Notes under the pieces: model-generated
Databases searched by the model: none
Seen by the model: the letters and a program-made list of their open reading frames with translations, nothing else
What the model was told of the DNA's origin: nothing
Program-made: the position numbers and the translations under genes
Part shown: piece after piece, positions 3,311 to 57,721 of the stretch
How positions within the stretch are numbered: position 1 is the stretch's first letter
Layout: the number at the start of each line of letters is the position of its first letter
NCBI RefSeq assembly: GCF_007991655.1
Contig: NZ_BJYT01000001.1
Location: 434,001-498,000 of the forward strand
DNA from: Segetibacter aerophilus
GTDB lineage: Bacteria > Bacteroidota > Bacteroidia > Chitinophagales > Chitinophagaceae
Reading direction: 5' to 3'
Length of the DNA: 64,000 bases

Positions 3311-3364
3311 TTTGTTCCGGCCATAAATGCTCTTATCAACATCGTTGTGTCACTCACTTGTACT
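3311..3364 (-). repeat. Dispersed intergenic repeat, copy A (GTG-A-CAC form)
   Basis: Read on the minus strand this copy shows the whole consensus: GTACAAGTG, the core AGTGACACAAC, a short variable part, then GCATTTATGGCCGGAACAAA. It is the fullest copy in the window and lies between the map terminator and the next gene. Confidence 0.75.
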
Positions 3365-3484
3365 GTTGGAATAATATCAGCTGCAACTGACGCCGTACGA
3401 TTCTTTTTCGCAATAATAATACAGGCCTTAAACTTACATCGGACGAGTTAAAATAATATTGTCACTAAAGGATTAACTAAATTA

Positions 3485-4708
3485 ATGAGCAAGTTGATAG
3501 TGATCGGTGGGGGAGCAGCAGGTTTTTTTTGTGCGATTAATGCGGCACGTTTAAACCCTAGCCTCCAGGTTACAATTGTTGAAAAGACAAGCAAACTACT
3601 TGCTAAAGTACGGGTGAGCGGTGGCGGAAGGTGTAATGTTACTCATGCCTGCTTTCAAATACCAGCGCTTGTAAAAAAGTATCCAAGAGGTACTAATCTT
3701 CTTAAGAAGAGTTTTCACCAATTCAATACGGCTCATTGCGTTTCATGGTTCGAAGAGAGAGGCGTAAAGTTGAAAACTGAAGCAGACAATAGGATGTTTT
3801 CGATTACAGACAGTTCTCAAACTATTATAGATTGTCTTCTAAGAGAGGCAAGTAAATATAAAGTTGAGATCCTGATGAATAGGGAAGTGAAACAATTGGC
3901 AAGAGTAAACGATGAATGGCAGCTGGTGTGTTCGGACAACTCCCTAATTACGGCAGATTATGTCTGTGTCGCATGTGGTGGATATCCAAAAAGCGCAATG
4001 TTCGAATGGCTAACACGGCTGGGACATTCTATCGAAGAACCTGTTCCTTCATTGTTCACTTTCAATATACCCAACAACCCTATAACGAAACTTATGGGTG
4101 TATCTGTTGAACAGGCAACGGTAAAGATTGTAGGTAGTAAACTATCAGATGAAGGGCCACTGCTTGTTACTCATTGGGGAATGAGCGGACCTGCGATTTT
4201 AAAGTTGTCAGCGTGGGGAGCAAGAGAACTTGCCAATAAAAATTATCACTTTAATATTCTCGTTAATTGGTTAAGTAGTTACAACGAGCAAACTTTACGC
4301 GATCAATGGCAATTATTAAGAAATGAAAAATCTGCCCAAAAAATTGGAAACCGTAACCCTTTTAATTTGCCATCTCGCTTGTGGATTTACTTGTTGAACG
4401 AGAGCGGGATAAATGAAGAGATTCGATGGGCAGATCTGCCGGGAAAAGAACAAAACAAACTCATTAAAAACTTAACAGCCCAGGAATTTGAAGTAAAAGG
4501 CAAAACTACCTTCAAAGAAGAGTTTGTTACTTGCGGAGGAATAAAACTGAGTGAAGTAGACGCAAATACGATGCAAAGCAAAATAGTCCCTAACGTATAC
4601 TTTGCTGGCGAAATTTTAGACGTCGACGGAATCACTGGAGGCTTCAATTTCCAGCATGCCTGGACAAGTGGATGGATAGCTGCAAAGGCAATAGCAGAAC
4701 CAGAGTAG
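3485..4708 (+). CDS. FAD-dependent oxidoreductase of the HI0933/YhiN (aminoacetone oxidase-like) family
   Basis: A 407-residue flavoprotein. The N-terminus MSKLIVIGGGAAGFFCAINA is a dinucleotide-binding fold with G-x-G-x-x-G. It is followed by the family signature KVRVSGGGRCNVTH (residues about 40-55), and the C-terminus FAGEILDVDGITGGFNFQ closes the FAD site. The middle holds the HI0933 insert domain. The substrate of the family is not settled; some members oxidise aminoacetone. The gene stands alone, between a repeat upstream and a convergent cytochrome gene 27 bases downstream. The family call is firm, the reaction is not. Confidence 0.88.
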   Translation: MSKLIVIGGGAAGFFCAINAARLNPSLQVTIVEKTSKLLAKVRVSGGGRCNVTHACFQIPALVKKYPRGTNLLKKSFHQFNTAHCVSWFEERGVKLKTEADNRMFSITDSSQTIIDCLLREASKYKVEILMNREVKQLARVNDEWQLVCSDNSLITADYVCVACGGYPKSAMFEWLTRLGHSIEEPVPSLFTFNIPNNPITKLMGVSVEQATVKIVGSKLSDEGPLLVTHWGMSGPAILKLSAWGARELANKNYHFNILVNWLSSYNEQTLRDQWQLLRNEKSAQKIGNRNPFNLPSRLWIYLLNESGINEEIRWADLPGKEQNKLIKNLTAQEFEVKGKTTFKEEFVTCGGIKLSEVDANTMQSKIVPNVYFAGEILDVDGITGGFNFQHAWTSGWIAAKAIAEPE

Positions 4709-4735
4709 CAGTCAAACTCTCAAACCCATTCTGAA

Positions 4736-5083
4736 CTACGATCTCTTCTGGTGCTTATAAGCCTTCATATATTTTCCAATTGCCTCAAGTTCATCCTTAG
4801 AGATTTCGTTTTTTTTAAATGAAGGCATTACCCCTAAACCATGTCTCACCTGGAATTTCTTTATAAAGGAAGGAGCGGGGTTCCAGTTGATATCGGGGCC
4901 AAGGCCACCTTCGCCTCCTGGGTGACATTTTTGACAGTACTCGTTGTAGAGCACTTGCCCTTTTGCAACCTCGGTGGTTTTTGGTTCAAAGGTTCCTACC
5001 AAAGGTTCGCTTCTTCTGAGAGCGCAACCGGCAAAAACGCCAATGCAAATAAATCTTGCAATACTTTTCAGGTAAGTCTTCAT
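4736..5083 (-). CDS. Small c-type cytochrome lipoprotein
   Basis: A 115-residue protein with an N-terminal signal ending in IGVFAGC, a lipobox-like site that would anchor it in a membrane facing the periplasm. One heme-binding C-x-x-C-H is present (YCQKCHPGGEGG) and a probable axial Met lies in GVMPSFKKNEIS, giving a single-heme class I cytochrome domain. Its ATG overlaps the TGA of the upstream gene (ATGA at 5080-5083), so the two are probably translated together. The role inferred is electron acceptor for the partner dehydrogenase-like protein. Confidence 0.88.
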   Translation of the reverse strand: MKTYLKSIARFICIGVFAGCALRRSEPLVGTFEPKTTEVAKGQVLYNEYCQKCHPGGEGGLGPDINWNPAPSFIKKFQVRHGLGVMPSFKKNEISKDELEAIGKYMKAYKHQKRS

Positions 5084-6537
5084 AAGCCCTCCTTTGTTAT
5101 TTTCCAGATCATTCCTGTTTTGGCTTGAGGTAGCTGAAGTTTTTTTGTAGATTTTACAATGCCAAAGTCAACTATATAAAGCGACGTCCCTGAAGGGTCG
5201 AACTTTACAGATAATGGTCTTTCAAGACCACCGCTTTTTCGTTTAGAAGCTGGTCCGTTTTTATGTCCTCTGTTCACTGCAAAATCCTCAATTACCCCAT
5301 TGTTTACATTTACTCGCACTATTTTAAATCCAACCGGCGACATTACCTTTCCCACTTCCGGAGCCATGTCTCCAAATTGTGCAACAAACGCTTCGCCTTG
5401 ATAACCAAAACTGCTATTCTTTGAAAAGTCAAATCCATTAGAAGACGAGTGTACAGCAAAAATTGCAGTTGGCTTTGGAGGTGTGTTTGGATATTTTGCT
5501 AATAGAGGTTCTAACTTCTTTTTACCTGGTGCATGAAACTCTTCATCATTGACAATAGATTTCCCCGCTGAAAAGTCAGGCCATCCGTACCATAGTCCAT
5601 CCTTTATCTCCCACAAAACATCGCCCGCGCCCCATACTGGCCTGCTACCGCGATCATCATATGCGTTTTCTGTTACAAACAATTTTCCTGTAGGAGAAAC
5701 AGCAAGCCCGTAGGGATTTCTAAATCCCCATGCGACAACTTCGGGGTTGCCACCGGAAACAGGTATTCGAAGTATTGACCCTGTGCAGGGACATGCTCCT
5801 TTAATAACCTGGCCACTTGCTGTTGAAGTTCCAAAAGGAGAGAAAGCACCGGTTGTCGTTGTATCTTCTTTGGCAGTTGTCAAAACATTTGGGCTACCAA
5901 AATTTTTTCCGGCTAGTGTGATGTCTGCACAGGGTATGTCATGAAAAGTATTTTTTCTTAGAAGCCATCCATATAGTGCATTATCAGGTCCAACGACTCC
6001 AGAATTAGTGGCAGTACCTAGCCCAAAATAAATGTAGCCATCTTTAATAACTGGCCCGTTTGTATGATGATCTCCCATCGTGGGCAGATTGCTGATGAGG
6101 GGAGTAATTTTTCCATCCATTGATATTCTCAATATTTTACCGCCTTCCAGCACCCCGCCTTCTGCTACATAAAAGTTGCCTTGGTAAAAGGTGATTCCGG
6201 TCCACGGACCATTGTTAGTACCGGTTGCAATTGTTGTAGTATTGCCGCCTTTGTTTATTCGCAATAACTTCGGCAAGTTGAATACTTCGCCATAAGAGTA
6301 ACCCGCTTCAACTACATACAAATTTCCATCGCCATCAAACGCAACAGCACTTGGAAACGTTAGGCCAGTTGTTACAGGTTCTATTTTATATCCTTTAGGC
6401 AACGCGATGTCCGCGGCGTTAACCTGTCTTGCTTGGACAGTTTTTATTTGCCCGCCCCCCGTAGACTTCCTCATTTTATAGCAGGAGGAAAATCCTAACA
6501 TAGTAACACTGACAATAAGTAATGGAAGCCACCTCAT
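5080..6537 (-). CDS. Secreted beta-propeller dehydrogenase-like protein (sorbosone dehydrogenase/GDH type)
   Basis: A 485-residue protein with an N-terminal signal and a likely lipidation cysteine (LGFSSCYKM). The rest is a six-bladed propeller pattern: LPKGYKIEPVTTGLTFPSAV, FDGDGNLYVVEAGYSYGE, WGFRNPYGLAVSPTGKLFVT and RPLSVKFDPSGTSLYIVDFG are the repeated blade motifs of the L-sorbosone/PQQ glucose dehydrogenase superfamily. Such proteins oxidise sugars in the periplasm and pass electrons to a cytochrome, which fits the overlapping cytochrome c gene downstream. Cofactor and substrate cannot be read from the sequence. Confidence 0.8.
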   Translation of the reverse strand: MRWLPLLIVSVTMLGFSSCYKMRKSTGGGQIKTVQARQVNAADIALPKGYKIEPVTTGLTFPSAVAFDGDGNLYVVEAGYSYGEVFNLPKLLRINKGGNTTTIATGTNNGPWTGITFYQGNFYVAEGGVLEGGKILRISMDGKITPLISNLPTMGDHHTNGPVIKDGYIYFGLGTATNSGVVGPDNALYGWLLRKNTFHDIPCADITLAGKNFGSPNVLTTAKEDTTTTGAFSPFGTSTASGQVIKGACPCTGSILRIPVSGGNPEVVAWGFRNPYGLAVSPTGKLFVTENAYDDRGSRPVWGAGDVLWEIKDGLWYGWPDFSAGKSIVNDEEFHAPGKKKLEPLLAKYPNTPPKPTAIFAVHSSSNGFDFSKNSSFGYQGEAFVAQFGDMAPEVGKVMSPVGFKIVRVNVNNGVIEDFAVNRGHKNGPASKRKSGGLERPLSVKFDPSGTSLYIVDFGIVKSTKKLQLPQAKTGMIWKITKEGL

Positions 6538-6705: not shown

Positions 6706-6724
6706 AAAAATGCAACTGCTAATT

Positions 6725-13902: not shown

Positions 13903-14079
13903 TTATGCTACGATAAGTTTTTCATGATCCCCGGCCATCAACAACAATTGGTGTCTGAATAAAAGGCAGCAGCTTTCAATTTCAAGCGTTTTGTTTTCTA
14001 GTACAGTTACATAAGGAGCATCACCATGAATGTGACAAGTAATGGTTTCAAGCTTTTCCTTTAATTTATCAGGAGCCAT
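13903..14079 (-). CDS. Small protein of 58 residues, function unknown
   Basis: An open frame on the minus strand, in an otherwise empty 660-base gap, reads MAPDKLKEKLETITCHIHGD and continues APYVTVLENKTLEIESCCLL to end MAGDHEKLIVA. The composition looks like a real folded protein: a charged amphipathic helix, a C-H-x-H motif (TCHIHGD), a beta strand pair and a Cys-Cys. C-x-H and C-C could bind a metal. The start is preceded by an AT-rich leader without a Shine-Dalgarno, as for its neighbours. I do not know its function; conservation would decide whether it is real. Confidence 0.55.
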   Translation of the reverse strand: MAPDKLKEKLETITCHIHGDAPYVTVLENKTLEIESCCLLFRHQLLLMAGDHEKLIVA

Positions 14080-14194
14080 TTTCTAATTTTTCTTTTTAAA
14101 ACGAATTAAGGCGCAAATTATTTCTTGTTTTTGAATTTCAAATAGTTATATCAAATTAATATGTTCAAGCCATCTAGTACCGTTAGGTCTAAAA

Positions 14195-18921: not shown

Positions 18922-18958
18922 AATAAAAAGGTCCACATTTTTGTGGACCTTTTTTATT
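18922..18958 (+). terminator. Intrinsic terminator after the M13 peptidase gene
   Basis: AAAAAGGTCCACA pairs with TGTGGACCTTTTT around a T-rich loop, and a T run follows. It starts 19 bases after the stop codon and is symmetric enough to act in both directions. Confidence 0.85.
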
Positions 18959-18960
18959 GA

Positions 18961-19009
18961 CTAAGCATTTGTTTTTTATAGCATCATCGTTGTGTCACTC
19001 CCTTGTGCC
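18961..19009 (-). repeat. Dispersed intergenic repeat, copy B (GTG-A-CAC form)
   Basis: On the minus strand it reads GGCACAAGGGAGTGACACAACGATG-like (core 18984-19009), then a diverged right part containing CAAATGCTTAG. It lies directly behind the M13 gene terminator, in the convergent gap before 19147. Confidence 0.65.
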
Positions 19010-19146
19010 TTTATCAAAATTGCATCGCTGTGGCCTTCATGCAATTTTAAATATTTGTAAAGTAAGCACGCGGTGCTATCGAATATTTTAGAAATAACAA
19101 TGGCCGATGCGTAAACATCAGCCACCATAATTAGAGAGATAAAAGA

Positions 19147-20729: not shown

Positions 20730-20765
20730 GGGGAACTGGTCTTAGGGCTGCAAAGAATTACGACG

Positions 20766-20820
20766 GCACAAGTGTGCGACTCAACAAAAGCAAAATAGAA
20801 AAGTGTAGCCGGGTTAATAA
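20766..20820 (+). repeat. Dispersed intergenic repeat, copy C (TGCG-A-CTCA variant)
   Basis: It reads GCACAAGTGTGCGACTCAAC, then AAAAG, a variable part and TAGCCGGGTTAATAAATAAC. One base of the palindrome (CGC to CTC) differs, so this copy has lost the symmetry. It lies in the convergent gap between 20729 and 20853. Confidence 0.7.
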
Positions 20821-20852
20821 ATAACCAACTACACTTAGGAAATTTATAAGCA

Positions 20853-22283: not shown

Positions 22284-22383
22284 TTTTAAGCAATTGTTAG
22301 AGCGTGAATGAGTGTTATAAATGTAAGAATTTTTATCCTTGGAAAGCTTGAATATAAAGCCTGGTTTAGTGCAAATAAATCTT

Positions 22384-22440
22384 TTATGGGCCCAGCAGTG
22401 GCTCCTCAATCTATCATTCGTTGCGTCGCACACTTGTACT
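22384..22440 (-). repeat. Dispersed intergenic repeat, copy D (GCG-A-CGC form)
   Basis: On the minus strand it reads AGTACAAGTGTGCGACGCAACGAATGATAG-like (core 22417-22440), then a diverged right part with CTGGGCCCATAAAAG. It lies between the oxidoreductase start and the kinase remnants. Confidence 0.7.
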
Positions 22441-22519
22441 TTTTGTTTAGATGCATCTTTTGAAAAAACTATAATCTACGTTTCCTTTTGATTAACTTTC
22501 TCAGGGGTACTAAAAAGTA

Positions 22520-23008: not shown

Positions 23009-24976
23009 ATGAGATACAATTTTTTGCATATTCTCATCATACTAATTGCCAACAATGCTTTTGCACAATTTGTAGACTCAGCTAAAGCCAGGCAAATGTT
23101 TGCTACAAGTGTTAGTGATTCTACAACCTTGATTTCGCATTTGTACCTATCAAAGATTTTTATCGATATAAACAATGACAGCAGTATTAGCCATGCTCGA
23201 CAAGCTTACCAGTTAGCATTAAAATTAAAGTCAAAGAGTTATCAGGCTCAGTCTCTAGATTTGATGGGCGCCGTGCTTTTAAGAAGAGGTAATTTAGATC
23301 AATCTCTTGATTATTTACTTCAATCTAATTCAATTTTGAGTTCCTTAAACGATATTCATTTCCTAAAAATTAACAACAGAAATATTGCTGGTGTTTATAA
23401 AAGTTTGAATGATTATGATAGAGCAAGGGGGTACTATTTATCTGGATTAAATATTCCGCTTTCAGGAGACTCAACTGCTCGAAGCTGGCTACTTATGGAC
23501 ATCGGTGATTTGTACCTGCAAATGGGTAAGTTAGACTCGGCCCTTTACTACACAAAAAAATCCATCGATATTATATCTCTGCTATCTGATCGGGTCGGTA
23601 ATAAGTATCTGCCTGTTGCTCTACTTACTTTAGGGAAAATTCTAGAAAAAAAAGGTAATGTGTATGAAGCACAACAAAAATATCGGCAAGCTGTAGAAGT
23701 AGGACTAAAGTTTCATAATCTACAAGCCGCCGCCGAAAATTATATAGCTATTGCACATTTATTTAAAAAAAGCGGTAAGACAGACTCTTCGTTTATCTAT
23801 GCGAAAAAAGCTTTTGATATAGCAATTAAAGTAAATAATCCAAAATCTATTGCGGTAGCAAGTTCATTTTTGAAAGATTACTATAGAAGTAAAAATAATT
23901 TTGACAGTGCTTTTTTATACCAAGAAATTGGAAGCGCAGCTAAAGACAGTTTATTAAGTCTTGAAAAGATAAGGCAAATACAAAATCTATCTTTTAAAGA
24001 ACGATTGCAACAACAAGCAATACAAGACGCAAAAAACGAACTAAGGAACAGGGTAAAAGTATATAGTCTTGTTGCAGGATTAGTTATACTTATAGGAGCA
24101 GCTTTGTTTCTTTATAGAAACAATCGGCAAAAGCAGAAAGCGAATGCTTTACTGAAATTTCAAAAAGAACGAACTGAACGGGCATATGAGCAATTAAAGG
24201 CTACTCAAGTTCAACTCATTCAATCAGAAAAAATGGCATCTCTTGGAGAACTAACAGCAGGCATCGCCCACGAGATCCAAAACCCTTTAAACTTCATTAA
24301 CAATTTCTCAGACTTCAATACAGAATTGATAGAAGAGTTAGAACAAGAGGCAGACAAAGGAAATCTTGTTGAACTGAAATCAATAGCAAATGACATTAAA
24401 GAAAACGAACGAAAAATCAACCATCACGGCAAGCGAGCTGATGCAATAGTAAAAGGCATGCTCCAACATTCTCGTGCAAACACGGGCAAAAAAGAACCAA
24501 CTGATATTAACGCTTTAGCCGATGAATATCTACGACTAAGCTATCATGGCTTAAGAGCAAAAGACAGAGACTTCAATGCAGACTTTACAACAAACTTTGA
24601 TGCACAAGTAGGTAAGATCGACGTTGTTCCCCAAGACATAGGAAGAGTTTTATTGAACGTATACAACAACGCTTTTTTTGCAGTTTTTGAAAAAATGAAA
24701 AGATCGGATAAAACGTTCAAACCTTTAGTTTCAGTAACGACAAAAAGAGTCGCTGATAAAGTAGAGATTACAATAAAAGACAATGGCATAGGCATACCAC
24801 AGAAAGTAGTAGATAAAATCTTTCAACCATTCTTTACCACAAAGCCAACAGGGCAGGGAACAGGACTTGGCTTATCATTAAGCTACGACATTGTAAAAAC
24901 ACATAGTGGAGAGATAACAGTGGAAAGTACTGAGGGCGACGGAACTACCTTTATCATAACCATTCCAACAACTTAA
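23009..24976 (+). CDS. TPR-containing sensor histidine kinase
   Basis: A 655-residue protein. A signal-like N-terminus (ending NNAFAQ) is followed by about six TPR motifs (residues 30-300: QALDLMGAVLLRRGNL-type helices, YYLSGLNIPLSGDSTARSWL), a transmembrane helix at about 351-370 (LVAGLVILIGAALFLYR), a coiled coil and the kinase. H421 in GIAHEIQNPLNF is the phosphoacceptor. N, G1 (DNGIGIPQKV) and G2 (GQGTGLGLSL) boxes are complete. TPRs therefore lie in the periplasm. It is followed after one base by the giant kinase gene, so the two are probably translationally coupled. No response regulator is adjacent to this gene itself. Confidence 0.9.
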   Translation: MRYNFLHILIILIANNAFAQFVDSAKARQMFATSVSDSTTLISHLYLSKIFIDINNDSSISHARQAYQLALKLKSKSYQAQSLDLMGAVLLRRGNLDQSLDYLLQSNSILSSLNDIHFLKINNRNIAGVYKSLNDYDRARGYYLSGLNIPLSGDSTARSWLLMDIGDLYLQMGKLDSALYYTKKSIDIISLLSDRVGNKYLPVALLTLGKILEKKGNVYEAQQKYRQAVEVGLKFHNLQAAAENYIAIAHLFKKSGKTDSSFIYAKKAFDIAIKVNNPKSIAVASSFLKDYYRSKNNFDSAFLYQEIGSAAKDSLLSLEKIRQIQNLSFKERLQQQAIQDAKNELRNRVKVYSLVAGLVILIGAALFLYRNNRQKQKANALLKFQKERTERAYEQLKATQVQLIQSEKMASLGELTAGIAHEIQNPLNFINNFSDFNTELIEELEQEADKGNLVELKSIANDIKENERKINHHGKRADAIVKGMLQHSRANTGKKEPTDINALADEYLRLSYHGLRAKDRDFNADFTTNFDAQVGKIDVVPQDIGRVLLNVYNNAFFAVFEKMKRSDKTFKPLVSVTTKRVADKVEITIKDNGIGIPQKVVDKIFQPFFTTKPTGQGTGLGLSLSYDIVKTHSGEITVESTEGDGTTFIITIPTT

Positions 24977-24977
24977 T

Positions 24978-27900
24978 ATGGAAATTCAACAGGTAGGGTT
25001 GCTGTTAGAAAAAAATGCGGAACTAGAAAAAGTGTTAGCCGCAAAAAACCGGGAGTTGGAAATAGAAGCGGCATTGGAACGGGTGCGATCAAGGGCCATG
25101 GCTATGCACCATAGTCATGAATTAGCAGAAGCGGCAAACTTGTTATTTCTACAGGTCCAAACATTAGGTTTGCCTGTTTTAAGTTGCGGTTATAATATTT
25201 GGGAAAGGAATGAGACTATTTGCATGGCATGGATGAGTGATCAAAGCGGCTTAATTCAACAACCTTTTAAAATACCGCTAACAGAAAGTCCGGCCTTTAT
25301 CAAGTTTTATAATTCTAAACAAAGAGGTGAAGAATTTTACACTGAGGAAGTACGCGGAGAAGCCTTGGCTGCTCATTATCGGTACATGATTACACTTCCG
25401 GGCTTTGAAAAAATCGTAAAAGGATTTGAAAAAGCTGGATTTACACTCCCCACTTCTCAAGTTAACAACGTCGTAAATTTTTCACACGGCAACTTGGTTT
25501 TTATTACCTACCAACCTACTCCCGAGGCTCATGATATTTTTAAACGTTTTGGAAAAGTTTTTGATCAAACCTATACACGTTTTCTTGACCTACAGAAAGC
25601 TGAAGCGCAAACCAAGGCTGCTCAAATTGAGCTTGGTCTGGAGCGTATAAGGACGAGGGCCATGGCGATGCAGAAATCGGATGAACTGGCCGAGGCAGCG
25701 AAGCTCCTTTACAATGAGTTGAGAGCGCTCAACATTAACCCCGTCTCATGCGGATACATGTTTGTGAATGAAGAACAACAAACACAAACAGCGTGGGTTA
25801 CTTTGCCAGATGGAACCCTATTGCCTGATTATATCGTTTTCCCCTTATCAGGTGATCAGACTTTAAACGACCGATATAATGCCTGGAAGCAAAAAGAGCC
25901 GCTTCACAAGGCCAGGTTAGAAGGCGAGGAAAACAAAGAACATCATCGTTTTTTAGCCTCACAGGTACCCGCGGATATTTCAGCAAACATTTTTGCCCAC
26001 ATTCCAGACAACATCGTTTTTTACAGCGCTAACTTTTCAGCCGGCTATTTGATGATCATTGCCGCAGAATCATTTTCTTCTGAAGACGAACAAACCATCA
26101 TACGCTTTGCAAAAGTTTTTGAAATAACCTACACCCGTTTCCTTGATCTGCAAAAGGCGGAAGCACAAGTAAGAGAAGCGCGAATTGAGGCAGCGTTGGA
26201 ACGCGTTCGTTCGAAGGCGTTGGCAATGCACAAAAGCGATGACCTTCAGCAAGCGGCAGTAACGCTTTTTAACGAGCTTGAAAAAATCGAACCGCAAATC
26301 CTGCGTTGCGGTATTGCTATTCTTGACCCAATGAGGCCAAGAGCTGATGTTTGGATTGCGGTAAAAGGAAAGGAAGGAAATGCAATTCAAGTTTCTGGCA
26401 GTGAGCCGCTAGACACCCATCCCATGCTTCTTAACGCATACGAAGCATGGAAGCGGCAGGAAGACTATTCTCATCAGCTTCAGGGGGACGAGTTAATGCA
26501 GTATTATAATTCTATGGCTGTAAATACATTTCAAGCAACAGTTTCAGAAAGCCACAGCAGCAGCAATTTGGCCTACGGGCAGCGTTATTTCAACGCGGTG
26601 TTCACCCACGGATCCCTTTTCGTTTTTTTTAACCAATCTGGTTCAGAAGCAGTAGTTGCATTGGTGAAGCGTTTTGTTAATGTATTTGACCTGGCTTATA
26701 AGCGTTTTTTAGATTTGGAAAATGTCGAGGCGCAAGCAAGAGAAGCACAAATCCAACTGGCTCTAGAACGGGTAAGGGCAAGAACAATGGCGATGCAGAA
26801 AAGTGATGAACTTACTGATGTGGCGGCGTTACTGTTCAGGCAAGTAAGTGATCTTGGAATAAAGACTTGGACGACCGGTTTCAATGTTTGGAGTGAAGAC
26901 AATAACTTTTATACCGACTATATCACAAATCCGCAAGGTGGGTTTATGGATCCATACGTTATCGACGCGAGCATAATGCCGATTTCTATTAAGTTGCGTA
27001 ACGCCAAAATAAGGGGCGAAGAATTTTTTGTTAATTCTGAAGAAGGAGAGGCTCTTGCAGAGGTCTATCGTGAATTAGCGAAGTTTGGAAAAGATCAATT
27101 TAAGGGAGTATTGGAAAGCGGGTTTGAGTTTCCAACGAGTCAATATGAACACTTTGTCTTCGGGTCGAAGGTTAGCCTCATCTTCATTACGTATGAGCCG
27201 GTACCTAAAGCACACGATATTTTTAGGCGGTTTGGAAAAGTTTTCGAACAGACTTACACCCGCTTTCTGGATCTGCAGAAAGCAGAGGCGCAGGCAAGAG
27301 AGGCCAGAATTGAGTTGGCATTAGAAAGAGTTAGAGCAAGAACGATGGCAATGCAGAAAAGCACTGAGCTACTTGAAATATCGTCTTTGCTTTTTGAACA
27401 AGTAAAAGAATTGGGAGTAACGGCTATACAAAATTCTATTGGAATCGTTAACGAGGAAGCCGGTTTTGTTGAATTATCTACAACTATTTATGGCAGTCAT
27501 TTACTACGTACGCTTAATGTGCCAATCAATGATCCTTTTTTGATGGTTAAAGCAGTTGCTGCATGGAAAGCAAAACAGACTTCATTAACACTCAAGTTTG
27601 AAGGACAGGAATTAAAGAACTACAATGAATTACGAAACAGTTTTTACGAAAAGAAAGTAAATTTTCCTGAAGACTGCTGGTTTGTTTATATCAATTTCTT
27701 TTCAAAGGGATGGCTTTCGTTTTCTTCCGATAGAGAGGTATCCGGTGATATTCTCGTAGTACTAAGAAGATTTGCGGCTGTCTTTGAACAGACTTATATC
27801 CGTTTCCTCGATTTGCAAAAAGCAGAGGCGCATGCACGGGAGGCCCAAATAGAAGCGGCTATGGAACGGCTGCGAACAAAAGCGATGACCATGCAAACCT

Positions 27901-29834
27901 CTGGTGAGCTCGCTACTGTTGTTAAGTCATTGTATATCGAGTTGAAAAGACTTGACGAGTCACTGAACAGGGCTTTTATTATGATGTTTGATGAGCAAAC
28001 TGGAGGTGTAACCTGGTGGATGGCAGGTGATGATGAGGCTTTAACAGAACAGGCCTACCGCATCCCTTATAGCAACAACCCGCCGCAACTCGCCTACCTA
28101 AAGGGTTGGAAAGAACGGCAGGAAAAGTGGCTGTACGTGATGGAAGGAAACGAAAAGAAAGAGTGGGATGCATTTCTTTTCAATGAAACCGAACTATCCA
28201 CCTTACCGCCTATTGTTATTCAATTTATGAAGTCGTTTGAAAAAATCTACTTATCCGCATCCTTCAATAGTTTCGGATGCCTGACGACGGGCAGTGTTCA
28301 ATCGCTTAGTAGTGAGTCCTTCGATATTTTGGTTCGATTTTCTAAAGTTTTCGATCTTAGTTACACCCGATCCCTCGATTTAAAACAGGCGGAAGCGCAG
28401 GTGAAAGAAGCAAAAATAGAAGCTGCCCTTGAAAAGATAAGAAGCAGTTCGTTGACTATGCACCATTCTAACGAACTGGTAAGTGTTATTGGCGTGATGT
28501 TCGAAAAATTGAAAGAGTTAGACGTACTACTTGGTACTGTTGCTATATGGCTGTTTAACAAAGCAACGATGGATTCCATTTTTTGGGTAGGTAATGATTG
28601 GCAACAGCCTGCTATGGTTCATCTTCCGTACGATGAGCAATTAATGAAAGAAGACACTAATTATAAAGATGGTTGGGAGGCCTGGCTTAGTGGTGAGAGC
28701 TTCATAAATAAAGAGTATAGTAAACAACAAAAAGATAGATATTTCGAGTACGTACTGGCCCACAACGACCTCGTAGCCATTCCTCCTGCAGCAAGAGAGA
28801 TGCTTATTCAAGCGAACAAATATATTGCTTGCTTACTGGTAGAAAAACATTCTGCCTTGTATTTTGATTGCTGGCACGGGGCAACATATAACGAAGAAAG
28901 TGTCGAGATACTGAAAAGAGTTGCTAAAGTCTTTGAGCAAGCCTATGTACGGTTCCTTGATCTGCAGAAAGCAGAAGCACTTGCTGTACGGGCTGAGCAA
29001 GACCTGGCAGAAATAAAAGCAGCGAGGAAAAAAGCAGAAGAGACACTGGTTGAACTAAAGTCGACGCAGGCTCAACTTATACAGGCTGAAAAGATGGCTT
29101 CACTTGGAGAGCTGACTGCCGGCATCGCTCACGAAATCCAGAACCCCTTAAACTTCGTCAACAACTTTTCAGAAATCAACAAAGAACTTCTTGAAGAACT
29201 AAAAAGCGAATTGAACGAAGGAGATAAAGAAAATGCAATTTCGATTGCGAATGATGTTATAAATAATGAACAAAAAATAAATGAACATGGTCGCCGGGCG
29301 GATGCCATTGTGAAAGGCATGCTCCAGCATTCGCGTGCAAACGCAGGCAAAAAAGAACCAACAGACATTAATGCTTTAGCAGATGAATATTTGCGCCTAA
29401 GTTATCATGGCTTAAGAGCTAAAGACAAAAACTTTAATGCGGACTTCACAACAGATCTTGATGACAACGTAGGTACAATAAAAGTGGTTCCGCAAGACAT
29501 TGGAAGAGTTTTGCTCAATCTATACAACAACGCTTTTTATGCAGTTTTTGAAAAAATGAAAAGGTTGGATAAAACGTTCAAACCTTTAGTTTCAGTGGCC
29601 ACAAAAAGAGTTGATAATAAAGTAGAAATTATTATAAAAGACAATGGTATCGGTATTCCTGAAAAAGTAGTAGATAAAATTTTTCAACCATTCTTTACAA
29701 CTAAGCCAACAGGGCAGGGGACGGGGTTAGGCTTGTCATTGAGCTATGATATTATAAAGGCACATGGCGGTGAATTGAAAGTGGAGACAGAAGAAGGAAA
29801 AAGCGCAATTTTCATTATTGAGCTACCAATATAA
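24978..29834 (+). CDS. Giant soluble histidine kinase with seven tandem sensory modules
   Basis: A 1618-residue protein without membrane segments. From residue 29 it carries seven repeats of 180-189 residues, beginning at about residues 29, 217, 403, 592, 778, 958 and 1147. Each starts with a conserved helix like EAALERVRSRAMAMHKSDEL, contains a beta-rich GAF-like core of about 140 residues, and ends in FGKVFEQTYTRFLDLQKAEA before the next helix. After residue 1335 come a coiled coil and a complete kinase: H1385 in GIAHEIQNPLNF, DNGIGIPEKV and GQGTGLGLSLSYD. Repeats 1 and 4 are most alike. Only the GAF-like nature is an inference; the repeat structure is visible. It probably integrates several cytoplasmic signals. 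Confidence 0.85.
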   Translation: MEIQQVGLLLEKNAELEKVLAAKNRELEIEAALERVRSRAMAMHHSHELAEAANLLFLQVQTLGLPVLSCGYNIWERNETICMAWMSDQSGLIQQPFKIPLTESPAFIKFYNSKQRGEEFYTEEVRGEALAAHYRYMITLPGFEKIVKGFEKAGFTLPTSQVNNVVNFSHGNLVFITYQPTPEAHDIFKRFGKVFDQTYTRFLDLQKAEAQTKAAQIELGLERIRTRAMAMQKSDELAEAAKLLYNELRALNINPVSCGYMFVNEEQQTQTAWVTLPDGTLLPDYIVFPLSGDQTLNDRYNAWKQKEPLHKARLEGEENKEHHRFLASQVPADISANIFAHIPDNIVFYSANFSAGYLMIIAAESFSSEDEQTIIRFAKVFEITYTRFLDLQKAEAQVREARIEAALERVRSKALAMHKSDDLQQAAVTLFNELEKIEPQILRCGIAILDPMRPRADVWIAVKGKEGNAIQVSGSEPLDTHPMLLNAYEAWKRQEDYSHQLQGDELMQYYNSMAVNTFQATVSESHSSSNLAYGQRYFNAVFTHGSLFVFFNQSGSEAVVALVKRFVNVFDLAYKRFLDLENVEAQAREAQIQLALERVRARTMAMQKSDELTDVAALLFRQVSDLGIKTWTTGFNVWSEDNNFYTDYITNPQGGFMDPYVIDASIMPISIKLRNAKIRGEEFFVNSEEGEALAEVYRELAKFGKDQFKGVLESGFEFPTSQYEHFVFGSKVSLIFITYEPVPKAHDIFRRFGKVFEQTYTRFLDLQKAEAQAREARIELALERVRARTMAMQKSTELLEISSLLFEQVKELGVTAIQNSIGIVNEEAGFVELSTTIYGSHLLRTLNVPINDPFLMVKAVAAWKAKQTSLTLKFEGQELKNYNELRNSFYEKKVNFPEDCWFVYINFFSKGWLSFSSDREVSGDILVVLRRFAAVFEQTYIRFLDLQKAEAHAREAQIEAAMERLRTKAMTMQTSGELATVVKSLYIELKRLDESLNRAFIMMFDEQTGGVTWWMAGDDEALTEQAYRIPYSNNPPQLAYLKGWKERQEKWLYVMEGNEKKEWDAFLFNETELSTLPPIVIQFMKSFEKIYLSASFNSFGCLTTGSVQSLSSESFDILVRFSKVFDLSYTRSLDLKQAEAQVKEAKIEAALEKIRSSSLTMHHSNELVSVIGVMFEKLKELDVLLGTVAIWLFNKATMDSIFWVGNDWQQPAMVHLPYDEQLMKEDTNYKDGWEAWLSGESFINKEYSKQQKDRYFEYVLAHNDLVAIPPAAREMLIQANKYIACLLVEKHSALYFDCWHGATYNEESVEILKRVAKVFEQAYVRFLDLQKAEALAVRAEQDLAEIKAARKKAEETLVELKSTQAQLIQAEKMASLGELTAGIAHEIQNPLNFVNNFSEINKELLEELKSELNEGDKENAISIANDVINNEQKINEHGRRADAIVKGMLQHSRANAGKKEPTDINALADEYLRLSYHGLRAKDKNFNADFTTDLDDNVGTIKVVPQDIGRVLLNLYNNAFYAVFEKMKRLDKTFKPLVSVATKRVDNKVEIIIKDNGIGIPEKVVDKIFQPFFTTKPTGQGTGLGLSLSYDIIKAHGGELKVETEEGKSAIFIIELPI

Positions 29835-29954
29835 TTTGAGCAAATTTCCAAAAAACTGAAAAACTCGTATTGCAAGCATCTTAGGTATTATTTACAGAAC
29901 CAAATTAATAAGACCTATTATGCCGAGAAGCTCTTGAGGCTATGAAAAAATAGG

Positions 29955-30010
29955 GTACAAGGGAGTGACACAACTTAAGATGCGCAACGCATTCTTTGCT
30001 CATACAAAAA
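29955..30010 (+). repeat. Dispersed intergenic repeat, copy E (GTG-A-CAC form)
   Basis: It reads GTACAAGGGAGTGACACAAC, then a variable part, and a diverged right part GCATTCTTTGCTCATACAAAA. It lies in the 281-base gap between the giant kinase and the next kinase, which otherwise shows no gene or clear promoter. Confidence 0.65.
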
Positions 30011-30115
30011 GAGAAATAAAAATTTGTGGTTTAAGTAAACGGCTTTTCATTATTTTAACGCAAATTTTTATACGGATCTTTCCGATGCTGCTGAGCTAAA
30101 TATCTATAACCCCTT

Positions 30116-31489
30116 ATGTCAGGAGAACTCATACTTGCTTTTTTTCTTGTCAGGTACTTTCGACAATCTCAGCCTGATTCTTCGCCTTTTAAGAAATGGG
30201 ATAAACAGCTTTTACAGACGATGTATGTAATTGCTGCTCTTGGGGTTCTTGATCTGGTTGTATTTAAAAATTCTGTCCTTAACTGGGTAGCACATTTTTT
30301 TCTTTTAGGTGCCATTGGTATTGCTTATGTTCTGCCTGAACTTCGATTTTTTAGGAACACAGTCATTGCTGTTTTACCCTTTGCCATCGTATCTTTTTTA
30401 ACGGACGTGGTGGGTTTAATTCATACGCCTTTCTTTCAGAAGATTGAGGACTATTTCGAGATTATACAGATTTGTACAGTTGCCTGGATGATAGCCATGT
30501 TGATTGGCGTAAACAAGCAAAGGAAAGCGCTTGAAAAAGAACGGCAAAAGAGAGAGATTGAAGAGGAACAGAACAGGTTCATAGCAGCTCGTAGAGCGGA
30601 ACTTGAAACAATGGTTGCAGCCAGAACATCGGAGCTACTAACGCAAAAAGAAGAACTTGAGCATGCACTAATGGAACTACGCGAGACCCAGGTGCAGCTA
30701 ATACAAAAAGAAAAAATGGCATCGTTAGGAGAACTGACTGCAGGTATCGCACATGAAATTCAAAACCCTCTGAATTTTGTCAATAATTTCTCTGAAGTAA
30801 ATAAAGAACTGTTGGATGAAATGGAGCACGAAGTCGACAAGGGCAATATGGCTGAGGTGAAGGAGATCATGAAGGACATTAAGGAGAATGAAATAAAGAT
30901 CAGCCAACACGGTAAGCGAGCGGATGCAATTGTAAAAGGAATGTTGCAGCACTCCCGGTTAAGCTCAGGAAAAAAGGAGCCAACAGACATAAATGCTTTA
31001 GCAGACGAATATTTAAGATTGAGTTACCACGGTCTTCGCGCTAAAGACAAAAGTTTCAATGCAACTTTTAAAACGGATTTTGATGAATCGATAAAAGAAA
31101 TAGAAGTTATTCCACAAGATATTGGGCGTGTTTTGTTGAACTTAATAAACAACGCTTTTTACTCGGTGAACGAAAAGAAGAAAGCGTGGAGTCAAACCCC
31201 TAACACTGATAGGTATGACCCAATTGTTTATGTTGCTACAAAAAGGCTGGATGGTAAGGTGCAAATTTGTGTAAAGGATAATGGAATGGGAATTCCGCAA
31301 AAAGTGCTTGATAAAATTTATCAGCCTTTCTTTACAACCAAGCCAGCGGGACAGGGTACGGGTCTTGGTCTGTCGCTTAGCTACGAAATTTTGAAAGCAC
31401 ATGGAGGCGAGTTGAGAGTAGAAACCAGGGAAGGTGAGTTTGCGCAATTCATAATGGAACTGCCCTTTGCATCAGTTGATAAGGTATAA
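30116..31489 (+). CDS. Membrane-bound sensor histidine kinase
   Basis: A 457-residue kinase. About four hydrophobic segments occupy residues 1-140 (SGELILAFFLVRYF, QTMYVIAALGVLDLVVF, WVAHFFLLGAIGIAYVLP, TVIAVLPFAIVSFLTDVVGL) without a large outer domain, then comes a charged coiled coil (KQRKALEKERQKREIEEEQN) and a kinase core with H213 in GIAHEIQNPLNF, DNGMGIPQKV and GQGTGLGLSLSYE. The kinase part is close to the two upstream kinases, so all three share ancestry. The receiver gene starts 21 bases later, so the three genes 30116-32921 are likely one operon. Confidence 0.9.
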   Translation: MSGELILAFFLVRYFRQSQPDSSPFKKWDKQLLQTMYVIAALGVLDLVVFKNSVLNWVAHFFLLGAIGIAYVLPELRFFRNTVIAVLPFAIVSFLTDVVGLIHTPFFQKIEDYFEIIQICTVAWMIAMLIGVNKQRKALEKERQKREIEEEQNRFIAARRAELETMVAARTSELLTQKEELEHALMELRETQVQLIQKEKMASLGELTAGIAHEIQNPLNFVNNFSEVNKELLDEMEHEVDKGNMAEVKEIMKDIKENEIKISQHGKRADAIVKGMLQHSRLSSGKKEPTDINALADEYLRLSYHGLRAKDKSFNATFKTDFDESIKEIEVIPQDIGRVLLNLINNAFYSVNEKKKAWSQTPNTDRYDPIVYVATKRLDGKVQICVKDNGMGIPQKVLDKIYQPFFTTKPAGQGTGLGLSLSYEILKAHGGELRVETREGEFAQFIMELPFASVDKV

Positions 31490-32921: not shown

Positions 32922-32952
32922 AATTTTATTCTTGTTCTAACCAGCTTTCAAT

Positions 32953-32986
32953 CTGTTCCCGACATCGTTGTGTCACTCACTTCGAC
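32953..32986 (-). repeat. Dispersed intergenic repeat, copy F (GTG-A-CAC form)
   Basis: On the minus strand it reads GTCGAAGTGAGTGACACAAC, then GATGTCGGGAACAG, so the left and right parts lie closer together than in copy A. It lies 32 bases after the cyclase stop. Confidence 0.65.
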
Positions 32987-33193
32987 TATAACTATTTTCT
33001 GTACTTCTTCCAGCCAGTGTGATAACCGCCTAGATATGGGAGAGATTTCTCCATTTTCAAAAAATCTCCTTATTTTCCTTCAAACCTTTCTGAAATCTTA
33101 ATCTCAGTTCGGCGAATTAATAATAGAACATCCACCTTTTCGTTTATGAAAAGAAAATTCAGTTAAACCTATTTTGACCATTACTAATTATCT

Positions 33194-33958: not shown

Positions 33959-34011
33959 CACTGTTGATGCCTCAAAACAGGGCTATGGAAAGCTCCGTAA
34001 AGATTTGCCGT

Positions 34012-34067
34012 AGAAGGGTGTGACACAACTATGCTCCATAGCATTTAAATCGCTGGACAGAACAAAA
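34012..34067 (+). repeat. Dispersed intergenic repeat, copy G (GTG-A-CAC form)
   Basis: It reads GAAGGGTGTGACACAACTAT, a variable part, GCATTTAAATCGCTGGACAG and AACAAAATT. The base before the palindrome is T as in the GCG form, so it is intermediate between the two forms. It lies in the convergent gap before the helicase gene. Confidence 0.65.
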
Positions 34068-37965: not shown

Positions 37966-38088
37966 AGTAGACGAAAATAAGGGTAATACGGTATTTGTTG
38001 TCGTTGGGCAACGATTAAGATTTGAGTTGATTCTTTTTGTAACAGTGATGTAGATAAAGGCGCTTTTATTGCTCAATAAAAAAAGAAA

Positions 38089-38140
38089 GTACAAGTGTGC
38101 GACGCAACAAAAGTTGAAAGTGGTAAAAATGCCGGGTAAA
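38089..38140 (+). repeat. Dispersed intergenic repeat, copy H (GCG-A-CGC form)
   Basis: It reads GTACAAGTGTGCGACGCAAC, then AAAAG, a variable part and ATGCCGGGTAAAA. This is the clearest GCG-form copy, in a divergent gap. Confidence 0.75.
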
Positions 38141-38228
38141 AAATATTTACTTCAACACGAATGCTGTGTAGATTGCACATTAAGTATTTGGAAGGATAGG
38201 TAGAAAAATAAATAATTGGAGGTTAAAA

Positions 38229-44792: not shown

Positions 44793-44850
44793 ATTTTTGG
44801 AACCAACATTAGTAATGCTAATCATCAGTGTTGTGTCACTCACTTGTACT
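44793..44850 (-). repeat. Dispersed intergenic repeat, copy I (GTG-A-CAC form)
   Basis: On the minus strand it reads GTACAAGTGAGTGACACAAC, then ACTGATGATT, GCATTACTAATG and TTGGTTCCAAAAAT. Left part and palindrome match copy A exactly. Confidence 0.72.
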
Positions 44851-44959
44851 TTCAATCTTTTTTGATCGGAAATCGCCGATGTGGCAATTTCTCTGGTTCA
44901 TTTTTTAGCTCCCTTTTTATTGTAACAAAATGTGTTAGTCAATTAAAATATCATAGACA

Positions 44960-46868: not shown

Positions 46869-46912
46869 GTTTGATCCTTTTTCCGGCCTTTTTTCCATAA
46901 AGAGAAAATGTT

Positions 46913-46965
46913 GAAGAGTGCGACGCAACAAAAGGCGCATTGATAGACATGGCCGGGTTACAAAT
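46913..46965 (+). repeat. Dispersed intergenic repeat, copy J (GCG-A-CGC form)
   Basis: It reads GAAGAGTGCGACGCAAC, then AAAAGGCGCATTGATAGAC and ATGGCCGGGTTACAAA. The left GTACAAG part is partly lost, the palindrome and the right part are intact. Confidence 0.7.
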
Positions 46966-47117
46966 TGTCTTACGCGTTTGCCATAAACCCTCTTGTAGTT
47001 TGCATCTTTTTGTATGTCTTTTTTTATGTTAGCTAACTGAAATAAGCAAAGTACATTCGCTTTTTTTAGGTAACGGTTGCTGTACCACAAAGAGTTGTTT
47101 TACTAATTTTACTATTG

Positions 47118-50027: not shown

Positions 50028-50401
50028 AACAAAGCAAAGAAAGCAGGTTTTCGTGAATTAGTCAGCAAGTGAAGCCGCTTTTATGACGGGTGTTAAAAAG
50101 TAATTTTTAATTCTTGCCAACTGGGTGTTATCAACAAGGAAAAAGGGCAAGCTTACGTATTCTTGATATGGATTCGTGGCTTTGAATGACTGAGAAATTT
50201 ACAGGCATACGTGGAATAACTTCTTATCAACTGCTTAGCATGACAACTGCATTTTTGTTGCTTCAATTTTTTAATCAACCTTTGAAATGGAAACTGAAGT
50301 TGCAGGTGAACAGCCGTAAAAGTGTGCGACGCAACACTGTTGAGAAACGCATTTATGCCGGAAACAGAAAAATGATAGAAAAACATCAATAGCTAGAATA
50401 T
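50028..50401. other. Divergent intergenic region with a dispersed repeat
   Basis: It holds repeat copy K at 50315-50375. A frame at 50186-50392 exists but runs through the repeat and has no family match, so it is not called. No RNA gene is seen. Confidence 0.5.
50315..50375 (+). repeat. Dispersed intergenic repeat, copy K (GCG-A-CGC form)
   Basis: It reads CGTAAAAGTGTGCGACGCAAC-like sequence, then ACTGTTGAGAAAC, GCATTTATGCCGG and AAACAGAAA. Its right part is almost the same as that of copy A although its palindrome is of the other form, which ties the two forms into one family. Confidence 0.75.
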
Positions 50402-54598: not shown

Positions 54599-54601
54599 CT
54601 A

Positions 54602-56545: not shown

Positions 56546-56569
56546 AAAGTAAGTATAGGGATTTGGTAT

Positions 56570-56620
56570 CAAGCTTAAGTACTCACCTCGGCGTTCGTTG
56601 CGTCGCACACTGCAGCTTTG
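56570..56620 (-). repeat. Dispersed intergenic repeat, copy L (GCG-A-CGC form)
   Basis: On the minus strand the core is GCAGTGTGCGACGCAACGAA (within 56592-56616); the right part is diverged. It lies between convergent genes. Confidence 0.6.
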
Positions 56621-56726
56621 GGTGATTTTATCACCGTTTTCCGTTTCCCTAAAATTACAAATGAGGTCACAAAAAAGACGTGTGCGCCTTTGCCTTCTTT
56701 GCCTGTAAACTTCGCTCAGAACGTAT

Positions 56727-57533
56727 CTAAGCGATTAAGCAAGTGTAGCCCTCAGGAAAAGAAAATTCTAAGTTGGAGGTTTGTTCAAAAATACCAAACA
56801 CTGTACTTCCGGAACCGGTCATCGAAGCATATAGGGCTCCTTTTTCGTACAGTTGTTCCTTTAAGTTTTTTATTGCAGGGTATAGATCGAAAACTGTTTT
56901 CTCAAAATCATTTACCAGCTCGTTTTTCCAAGTAGGTATTGGTTGCTTTATAATCTCGCTAACGCTCTTTAGTGGTCGGGCGGGCGTTAGCCTGGCAAAA
57001 GCTTCCTTGGTTGACACATGTATTCCAGGGTTAACCAACACAATTTTATATGACGCCAGATCTAATTCAACACGCGTCAGATTTTCTCCCCGTCCTGTAG
57101 CAAAGCAAGGTTTATTAATTATGAAAAACGGGCAATCGCTGCCTAATTGTAGCGCGTAGCTGATAAGTTTTTCTTCGGAAAGCTGTAGCTGAAAATGCTT
57201 GTTAAGCATGTTAAGCATAAAAGCACCGTCTGCGCTTCCTCCACCTAAACCTGCACCCATGGGAATGGCTTTGTGCAAATGAATAGTAACAGCAGGCAAA
57301 TCAGGAAAATCTTTCTTTAGAAGATGATAAGCTTTTACACAAAGATTATCGTCGATCGCACCGTTAACGGGCAAGCCGGTTGTCTGAAAACTAAAATCTT
57401 GAGATGGGATAATCTCCAAAGCATCTTTTATAGCAACAGGGTAAAAGACAGTTTCCAGGCTGTGGTATCCATCAGCTCTTTTGCCAATAACCTGTAAGCC
57501 TAAGTTGATTTTACAATTCGGAAAAAGAACCAC
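56727..57533 (-). CDS. ispE: 4-diphosphocytidyl-2-C-methyl-D-erythritol kinase
   Basis: A 268-residue GHMP kinase of the non-mevalonate isoprenoid pathway. It starts with ILFPNCKINLGLQVIGKRAD-like sequence (VLFPNCKINLGLQVIGKRADGYH, the K-I-N-L-G-L substrate loop), the ATP loop is PMGAGLGGGSADGAFML, and the third motif is YASMTGSGSTVFG. It phosphorylates CDP-methylerythritol in the cytosol. The gene is single; a degenerate repeat (copy M) lies upstream of its start. Confidence 0.96.
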   Translation of the reverse strand: MVLFPNCKINLGLQVIGKRADGYHSLETVFYPVAIKDALEIIPSQDFSFQTTGLPVNGAIDDNLCVKAYHLLKKDFPDLPAVTIHLHKAIPMGAGLGGGSADGAFMLNMLNKHFQLQLSEEKLISYALQLGSDCPFFIINKPCFATGRGENLTRVELDLASYKIVLVNPGIHVSTKEAFARLTPARPLKSVSEIIKQPIPTWKNELVNDFEKTVFDLYPAIKNLKEQLYEKGALYASMTGSGSTVFGIFEQTSNLEFSFPEGYTCLIA

Positions 57534-57683
57534 GATTTATTTGATTAGAAGGATTACAGAAAGTAGAACCGGGATTTATTGAATTAGAAGGATTGATGGG
57601 AAATAGAATGATAAAAGAATCTGAAAATTGAAACATTTTGTAGGAGTGGAGCTGAAGCCTGTTTTAACTTCTAAAGATGAACG

Positions 57684-57721
57684 GAGCGTCGCAACGGTGC
57701 TGCTATGAAAACAAATGCGGG
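57684..57721 (+). repeat. Degenerate dispersed repeat, copy M
   Basis: GAGCGTCGCAACGGTG, then CTGCTATGAAAACAAATGCGGG, shows a disturbed palindrome and a shortened right part. It may be an old copy of the family; this is the weakest member. Confidence 0.35.

What the first reader, a model, noticed from the sequence alone, without database searches (positions are those of the whole stretch)
3311..57721. Dispersed intergenic repeat family with a compensating palindrome
About 13 copies share GTACAAGTG, then AGTGWGYGACRCAAC, a short variable part and GCATTTATGGCCGGAACAAA. Cores: 3340-3364, 18984-19009, 20766-20790, 22417-22440, 29955-29974, 32962-32986, 34013-34029, 38089-38108, 44826-44850, 46913-46931, 50315-50335, 56592-56616 and (degenerate) 57684-57699. 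The palindrome occurs as GCG-A-CGC or GTG-A-CAC: C to T on the left arm goes with G to A on the right. That is compensating change around an odd centre, as expected for a symmetric protein-bound site, while a one-base loop argues against an RNA hairpin. Copies occur in both orientations, in convergent, divergent and tandem gaps. None lies inside a gene I accept. The shared right part in copies A (GTG form) and K (GCG form) ties both forms to one family. Possibilities: a mobile short element (REP/MITE-like) moved by a partner enzyme elsewhere, a chromosome-organising site, or a binding site for a regulator.
Basis: partly seen in the sequence, partly recalled or inferred. Interest (0 to 1): 0.8.

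Follow-up and report, generated by a model that had tools for sequence, protein, structure and literature searches.

The report
Conserved intergenic repeat across one bacterial family
A roughly 75-base DNA sequence with a nearly invariant 20-base core is scattered between genes, in some genomes more than a thousand times, in many but not all members of one bacterial family; it looks like a protein-binding site that was spread by some copying process and then kept, and what binds or moves it is unknown.

Summary
The repeat is real and genome-wide: GTGNGYGACRCAAC occurs 294 times in the window's genome, its reversed control 0 times; 85 of 87 copies on contig 1 lie outside predicted genes. The element spans about -26 to +48 around the core: GCTGAATAAAGA-like, GTACAAGn-GwGyGACrCAAC, variable U2, GCYGG..ACAAAAA. 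Two main core forms occur; the Y-R pair matches in 280 of 284 copies. It is patchy within one family (0 to about 1,300 copies) and nearly absent outside (0 of 163 and 1 of 288 genomes). Orthologous copies keep place, strand and core while flanks drift. It resembles REP/BIME/REPIN repeats (extragenic, head-to-head pairs, two forms), but has no hairpin and no linked Y1/RAYT transposase, none at all in the richest genome. Close direct neighbours are missing: 66 of 68 neighbouring solos within 2 kb are inverted. Best reading: a double-stranded DNA site for an unidentified protein, spread as a mosaic short element and probably kept by selection. A selfish miniature element is the main rival. The partner was not found.

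The parts
3307..3381 (-). copy 1, core 3344-3355, A form (GAGTGACACAAC), gap 3265-3485
   Evidence: same gap and strand occupied in congeners G006 and G008, no copy found in the fetched stretches of G002 and G003
18952..19026 (-). copy 2, core 18989-19000, A form, GCACAAGG lead
   Evidence: ortholog in G006
20748..20822 (+). copy 3, core 20774-20785, T form with one broken pair (GTGCGACTCAAC)
   Evidence: ortholog in G006 has GTGCGACGCAAC
22383..22457 (-). copy 4, core 22420-22431, T form (GTGCGACGCAAC)
   Evidence: ortholog in G006
29937..30011 (+). copy 5, core 29963-29974, A form
   Evidence: no exact-core copy upstream of the matching gene in G006
32930..33004 (-). copy 6, core 32967-32978, A form, GTCGAAGT lead
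   Evidence: ortholog in G006
33992..34066 (+). copy 7, core 34018-34029, intermediate form (GTGTGACACAAC)
38071..38145 (+). copy 8, core 38097-38108, T form
44793..44867 (-). copy 9, core 44830-44841, A form
46892..46966 (+). copy 10, core 46918-46929, T form, GTTGAAGA lead
50298..50372 (+). copy 11, core 50324-50335, T form, GTAAAAGT lead
56560..56634 (-). copy 12, core 56597-56608, T form, GCTGCAGT lead
57684..57731 (+). degenerate copy 13, GAGCGTCGCAAC followed by a U2-like stretch
   Evidence: not scored as a member

Best explanation
The repeat is a dispersed site of about 75 bp whose 20-bp core (GTACAAGn-GwGyGACrCAAC) is read as double-stranded DNA by a protein that recognises the short dyad G-Y-G-A-C-R-C. 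Copies were spread through intergenic DNA by copying short modules (shown: near-identical modules of 55 bp or more at unrelated loci), with the core region often the switch point between an inner and an outer half (shown: breakpoints). Single copies and head-to-head pairs then stay in place while the core is kept (shown: conservation between species; inferred: that selection rather than conversion keeps it). The bound protein, the copying enzyme and any benefit to the host are inferred and unidentified; my most likely candidate is one transposase- or recombinase-derived DNA-binding protein whose sites the host has come to use, as is proposed for BIMEs.
For: 294 exact copies, 0 in the reversed control. 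85 of 87 outside predicted genes; in five samples 15 of 319 cores fall in predicted genes (6 of the 15 in G072). Strand unrelated to the direction of flanking genes. Core near-invariant, flanks weaker but positional. Y-R pair kept in 280 of 284. No base-pair-like covariation outside the core; no excess single-strand folding in 11 window copies and the one dimer tested, z -0.37 to 1.42. In 20 interspecies pairs the 12-mer positions are 85-100% identical (10 of 12 at 95% or more), positions -45 to -20 only 15-50% and +21 to +44 30-60% (ungapped). Few decayed cores: among sites led by GTACAAG (at most 1 mismatch, prefiltered on GAC or CAAC) contig 1 has 66 with 0, 20 with 1, 0 with 2-3 and 4 with 4 mismatches, the last class also in shuffles. 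Pooled, solos are no more mutated than dimers: mean 0.87 (n=264) and 0.88 (n=92), p=0.88. Module copying: 23 same-genome pairs of at least 90% identity over at least 55 bp; 13 end by +23 on the outer side, 8 of them at +22; 4 start at -24 or later (examples).
Against: No protein was found: no transposase-like recurrent gene, judged by eye, in the 40 clusters shown or in 24 single-gene head-to-head intervals, and no repeat of 400 bp or more within the sampled stretches. Patchy: congener G003 has none and 43 of 98 family genomes have no match, so any host function is dispensable. The interspecies comparison required a core in both species, one window site is used twice and one pair (100388/41230) is doubtful. 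Conversion between copies could also keep cores alike; two same-gap sites in G067 and G280 carry different forms (92017 and its counterpart; 100388/41230). The solo/dimer result differs by group: dimers better conserved in genus 1 (0.64 and 0.88, p=0.23) and G072 (1.06 and 1.77, p=0.057), solos better in G067/G280 (0.69 and 0.93, p=0.046), and copies below the score cut-off are unseen.
Confidence: 0.42

Rival explanations
1. A purely selfish miniature element (MITE-like): two slightly different ends (A and T forms) of a non-autonomous transposon moved by an unidentified transposase; solos are single ends; uniformity reflects continued copying and conversion, not host use.
For: Head-to-head pairs under 300 bp join an A and a T form in 32 of 44 (expected half; p=0.0017), driven by G067/G280 (20 of 25, p=0.0016); genus 1 has 8 of 11 (p=0.1) and G072 4 of 8. 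In G067 and G280 the two forms tend to carry different U2 sequences, as two ends of one element would. Near-identical copies at unrelated loci. At two head-to-head pairs the inner part differs between G067 and G280 although outer flanks align.
Against: Single ends should decay, but pooled solos are no more mutated than dimers (groups disagree). Place and strand persist between species with about 70-85% identity. No autonomous copy or transposase was found, though only part of each genome was read.
Confidence: 0.32
2. A REP/REPIN family moved by a Y1 (RAYT) transposase.
For: Extragenic, hundreds of copies, 46 of 49 neighbours under 300 bp head-to-head and 0 direct, two forms in heterodimers; such traits are described for REPs (passages of PMC3733652, PMC2817692, PMC3116915).
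Against: No hairpin. Y1_Tnp is found in 15 of 20 carriers and 16 of 20 non-carriers tested; it is absent from carriers G280 (1,299 copies, single contig), G033, G061, G081 and G002 and has 7 matches in non-carrier G003. Of 30 Y1 loci fetched (about one per genome; other Y1 genes not fetched) 4 hold one core and none has cores on both sides.
Confidence: 0.06
3. A DNA-uptake signal sequence like those of Neisseria or Pasteurellaceae (names and traits recalled).
For: Many copies, both strands, conserved core, patchy taxonomic spread, inverted pairs.
Against: Nearly all copies are intergenic, near-miss sites are few, and modules were copied between unrelated loci, which accumulation by point mutation does not give.
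Confidence: 0.05
4. A structured RNA element, terminator or riboswitch.
For: Copies whose nearest gene boundary is a 3' end lie within about 150 bp of it; terminator-like hairpins occur nearby.
Against: Strand is even in tandem gaps (18/17 and 12/11); no Rfam family reached its gathering score in the window; no covariation or folding signal; terminator-like hits are also common where a gene start faces the element (39 of 108, against 43 of 77 where a gene end does).
Confidence: 0.04
5. Operators of one transcription factor regulon.
For: Short dyad with compensating forms.
Against: Hundreds to over a thousand copies, also in convergent gaps (12 of 85 on contig 1).
Confidence: 0.04

Closest known systems
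REP / BIME / REPIN (RAYT-associated)
   Same: Extragenic, high copy, inverted close pairs dominate, two unit types that tend to pair as heterodimers, variable inter-unit segments, few direct neighbours
   Different: No stable palindrome, no RAYT link, solos not clearly decayed, unit about 75 bp with an odd 7-9 bp dyad
CGTC-tagged palindromic repeats (PMC3733652, passages)
   Same: No dedicated transposase found; head-to-head pairs, heterodimers in several families; reported from Bacteroidetes among five phyla
   Different: Those have 8-9 bp stems, 4-5 base loops and short tails mostly fitting CCA; here no such stem-loop
MITEs such as Correia/Nemis elements of Neisseria (recalled, not tested)
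   Same: Short, intergenic, many copies, inverted ends
   Different: No transposase, target duplication or uniform two-ended unit found; most copies are single
DNA uptake sequences (recalled)
   Same: Strong core, both strands, patchy spread
   Different: Long extended consensus, few coding copies, module copying

Membership tests
REP/REPIN | imperfect palindrome forming a hairpin in single-stranded DNA | tested here: not met
   11 of 13 window copies and one G067 dimer fold no better than shuffles, z -0.37 to 1.42
REP/REPIN | cognate Y1/RAYT transposase in the genome, flanked by the repeat | tested here: not met
   0 Y1 in carriers G280, G033, G061, G081, G002; none of 30 fetched Y1 loci has cores on both sides; not every Y1 gene was fetched
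REP/REPIN | doublets more conserved than singlets | tested here: inconclusive
   pooled mean mismatches 0.88 (92 dimer cores) and 0.87 (264 solos), p=0.88; genus 1 and G072 lean to dimers, G067/G280 to solos
REP/REPIN | extragenic, high copy, inverted doublets | tested here: met
   (46 head-to-head, 3 tail-to-tail, 0 direct of 49 neighbours under 300 bp)
MITE | terminal inverted repeats shared with an autonomous transposon in the genome | tested here: inconclusive
   no repeats of 400 bp or more (85% identity) within each of five sampled stretches; no recurrent transposase-like gene seen; only about 14% of G000 was read
MITE | target-site duplication and clean empty sites | tested here: inconclusive
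   candidate empty gaps were too diverged or may hold remnants
CGTC repeats | 8-9 bp stem with 4-5 base loop ending in CGTC | tested here: not met
   folding; definition from passages
DNA uptake sequence | preferential uptake of bearing DNA | not testable with these tools
   needs an experiment
structured RNA family | conserved secondary structure | tested here: not met
   no Rfam hit at gathering score in the window, no long-range pair-like covariation in 269 copies, no folding signal with DNA parameters (RNA parameters not run)

The most novel reading that the evidence does not exclude
A polarity-sensitive chromosome site: a protein (architectural or recombinase-like) senses the relative orientation of neighbouring cores, so that direct pairs closer than about 2-4 kb are not tolerated while inverted pairs are, giving a bacterial chromosome marked every few kilobases by oriented sites.
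Probability: 0.15. Interest if true: 0.85.

Novelty: new variant of a known kind. Interest (0 to 1): 0.6.

Why it matters
An abundant, strongly conserved intergenic sequence shared by many genera of one bacterial family was not described in any paper my searches listed (five papers hold one of the 12-mers, by title on unrelated subjects). If its binder is found it would show either a mobile-repeat system without the usual RAYT enzyme or a chromosome-wide site with orientation rules. Genomes with 0 to about 1,300 copies in the same family make a good natural experiment.

Tried and rejected
RAYT partner: rejected. Protein coding: the frame reading V-Q-V-C/S-D-A/T-T looked tempting, but third-base positions are near-invariant where coding would let them vary and only 30, 78 and 48 of 316 copies are open across roughly -45 to +48 in the three frames. 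RNA element. Phage, plasmid or virus carriage: no match in the plasmid and phage collections for one dimer copy; 12 and 16 stretches in 2.9 million viral contigs, not examined further. Partner gene beside copies: none seen. Homology-driven deletion as the cause of missing direct pairs: intervals of 300-2000 bp are rarer than random intergenic placement gives (C1 11, expected 16.8 sd 3.5; G067/G280 44, expected 64.0 sd 3.8; G072 12, expected 14.0 sd 1.5), though intervals of 2-4 kb are in excess in G067/G280 (74, expected 49.6 sd 4.9); dimer-solo neighbours under 4 kb show no clear alternation (28 and 18); but surviving direct pairs at 2-4 kb are same-form in 25 of 31, the opposite of what homology predicts; left open. 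Strict alternation as a functional rule: not supported by the dimer-solo counts; the lag-2 and lag-3 pattern follows from the nearest-neighbour rule. Clean empty sites: none convincing. Orientation to replication: not tested beyond strand counts (130 and 164). Gene calls in scripts are a simple codon-usage method. Many comparisons were made on the same copies, so single p values near 0.01 should be read with care.
Full report
Observation. The 12-mer GTGYGACRCAAC with up to 2 mismatches occurs 23 times in the window, 9.07 (sd 2.89) times in shuffles. In the window's genome G000 (5,893,322 bases, 79 contigs; the window is contig 1, 434001-498000) GTGNGYGACRCAAC occurs 130 times forward and 164 reverse, the reversed control never. 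Twelve of the 13 listed copies score as members, all in gaps between predicted genes; the 13th is degenerate.

Anatomy. Aligning 87 copies on contig 1 shows information from about -26 to +48 around the core. With 284 copies (contig 1 plus named contigs; 269 of them) the order is a GCTGAATAAAGA-like unit, a spacer, GTACAAG-n-GwGyGACrCAAC, U2 (AGCTnAATAG-like, GATGCTGAA-like or GGCGATGCC-like), GCYGG and an A-run. Core positions 1, 3 and 7 change together: T,C,G or A,T,A, with T,T,A in between; the Y-R pair matches in 280 of 284. Outside the core I saw no base-pair-like covariation, and 11 of the 13 window copies plus one G067 dimer do not fold better than shuffles as single-stranded DNA. No Rfam family reached its gathering score in the window.

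Placement. 85 of 87 contig-1 copies lie outside predicted genes and in all gap types; in tandem gaps strands are even (18 and 17 in ++, 12 and 11 in --). The nearest gene boundary lies on the element's 3' side in 57 of 85 (35 plus 22), and the median distance is 73-96 bp on that side and 105-156 on the other in the three groups, so the element sits closer to the gene on its 3' side whichever way that gene runs. In five samples 15 of 319 cores fall in predicted genes.

Distribution. Nine of 10 genomes of the genus, the window's included, carry it (21 to 724 copies); G003 has none. Of 98 family genomes, one per genus, 55 have at least one match; by my count from the table 36 have four or more. 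Single matches can be chance: of the 30 loci read from 20 low-copy genomes most show a lead or tail like the consensus, a few do not. With the longer pattern, 0 of 163 genomes of other families of the order and 1 of 288 genomes of the class outside the family (G493, one copy; 4 of the 288 are also among the 163) match. The richest, congeners G067 and G280, hold 1,053 and 1,299 copies. Named carriers are recorded as Chitinophagaceae or as Chitinophagales, Sphingobacteriales or Bacteroidota without finer rank, plus genera such as Segetibacter, Ferruginibacter and Niastella (a capped list); that the window belongs to Chitinophagaceae is inferred.

Conservation and movement. In the stretch syntenic between G067 and G280 (blocks of about 70-85% identity), 14 of 17 G067 cores have a same-strand core within 130 bp of the matching place, 11 of them within 2 bp. 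In the stretches compared with G006, window copies 3344, 18989, 20774, 22420 and 32967 have same-strand orthologs, 29963 has none, and two G006 copies (12394, 16278 on its contig 99) have no exact counterpart in the window; copy 3344 also has a counterpart in G008. Over 20 pairs the 12-mer positions are 85-100% identical, the flanks -45 to -20 only 15-50% ungapped (pairs were chosen by having a core, one window site counts twice, one pair is doubtful). Against plain vertical descent, 23 same-genome pairs at different loci are at least 90% identical over at least 55 bp; 13 stop by +23 (8 at +22) and 4 share only the core and outer side (examples; pairs overlap, so they are not independent). The family is thus a mosaic whose halves are exchanged at or beside the core. 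At two head-to-head pairs the outer flanks align between G067 and G280 while the inner DNA differs; at one of them G280 holds a predicted gene of 156 residues where G067 has about 100 bp.

Pairs and orientation. Of 49 neighbours closer than 300 bp, 46 are head-to-head, 3 tail-to-tail and 0 direct. Head-to-head pairs join the two forms in 32 of 44 (p=0.0017), mainly through G067/G280 (20 of 25); genus 1 has 8 of 11 and G072 4 of 8. In G067 the A form more often carries a GATGCC-like and the T form an AGCT-like U2 (22 and 9; 5 and 16), in G280 likewise (15 and 4; 3 and 26), as if they were two ends. Between solos, 66 of 68 neighbours within 2 kb are inverted, 53 of 72 at 2-4 kb and 43 of 86 beyond (sums). 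Intervals of 300-2000 bp are fewer than random intergenic placement predicts, while those of 2-4 kb are in excess in G067/G280, so close direct pairs are missing rather than close inverted pairs added. Simple homology-driven deletion predicts that surviving direct pairs be of unlike form; they are alike in 25 of 31 at 2-4 kb. This stays unexplained.

Known families. The look is that of REPs, BIMEs and REPINs (passages of PMC3733652, PMC3116915 and PMC2817692). But there is no hairpin; Y1 transposases occur in 15 of 20 carriers and 16 of 20 non-carriers tested, are absent from several carriers including single-contig G280, and in the 30 fetched Y1 loci never have cores on both sides. Whether solos decay, as REPIN singlets do, is unclear: pooled they do not, but the three groups disagree. 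I therefore do not file it as a REP. CGTC repeats lack a transposase too but have 8-9 bp stems. A MITE of an unknown transposon stays possible. Text searches for the core 12-mers or for such repeats listed nothing that describes this family, by title and abstract start.

Verdict. A real, abundant, probably selected double-stranded DNA site spread as a mosaic short element; new as a family as far as these searches show; mechanism partly inferred and partner unknown.

Noticed in passing
window 23009-31489: Neighbouring histidine-kinase-like ORFs (HATPase_c in 23009-24973 and 30116-31486; 24978-29834 was not scanned). A protein search with the 457-aa one gives 46 matches in G000 and 30-60 in the nine congeners, many of them probably general kinase homology.
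   Followed up: no
G493 contig C9:2255-2274: The only copy found outside the family (class search): a single GAG-form 20-mer near a contig start; contamination, transfer or chance.
   Followed up: no
genome G043: 15 copies split 14 forward to 1 reverse across contigs, unlike the roughly even split in other carriers with many copies.
   Followed up: no
G067 and G280 head-to-head pairs: Inner segments contain other short hairpin-like motifs (CTGTCGAC runs, GCTCATAGCT runs), possibly nested repeat families.
   Followed up: no
G067/G280/G009 samples: A T-form variant ending GCAAG instead of GCAAC recurs, sometimes opposite a GCAAC ortholog.
   Followed up: partly
window 13904-14151: A stretch 91% identical to G006, higher than the 74-81% of neighbouring blocks; possibly an RNA or regulatory region, no Rfam hit at gathering score.
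   Followed up: no
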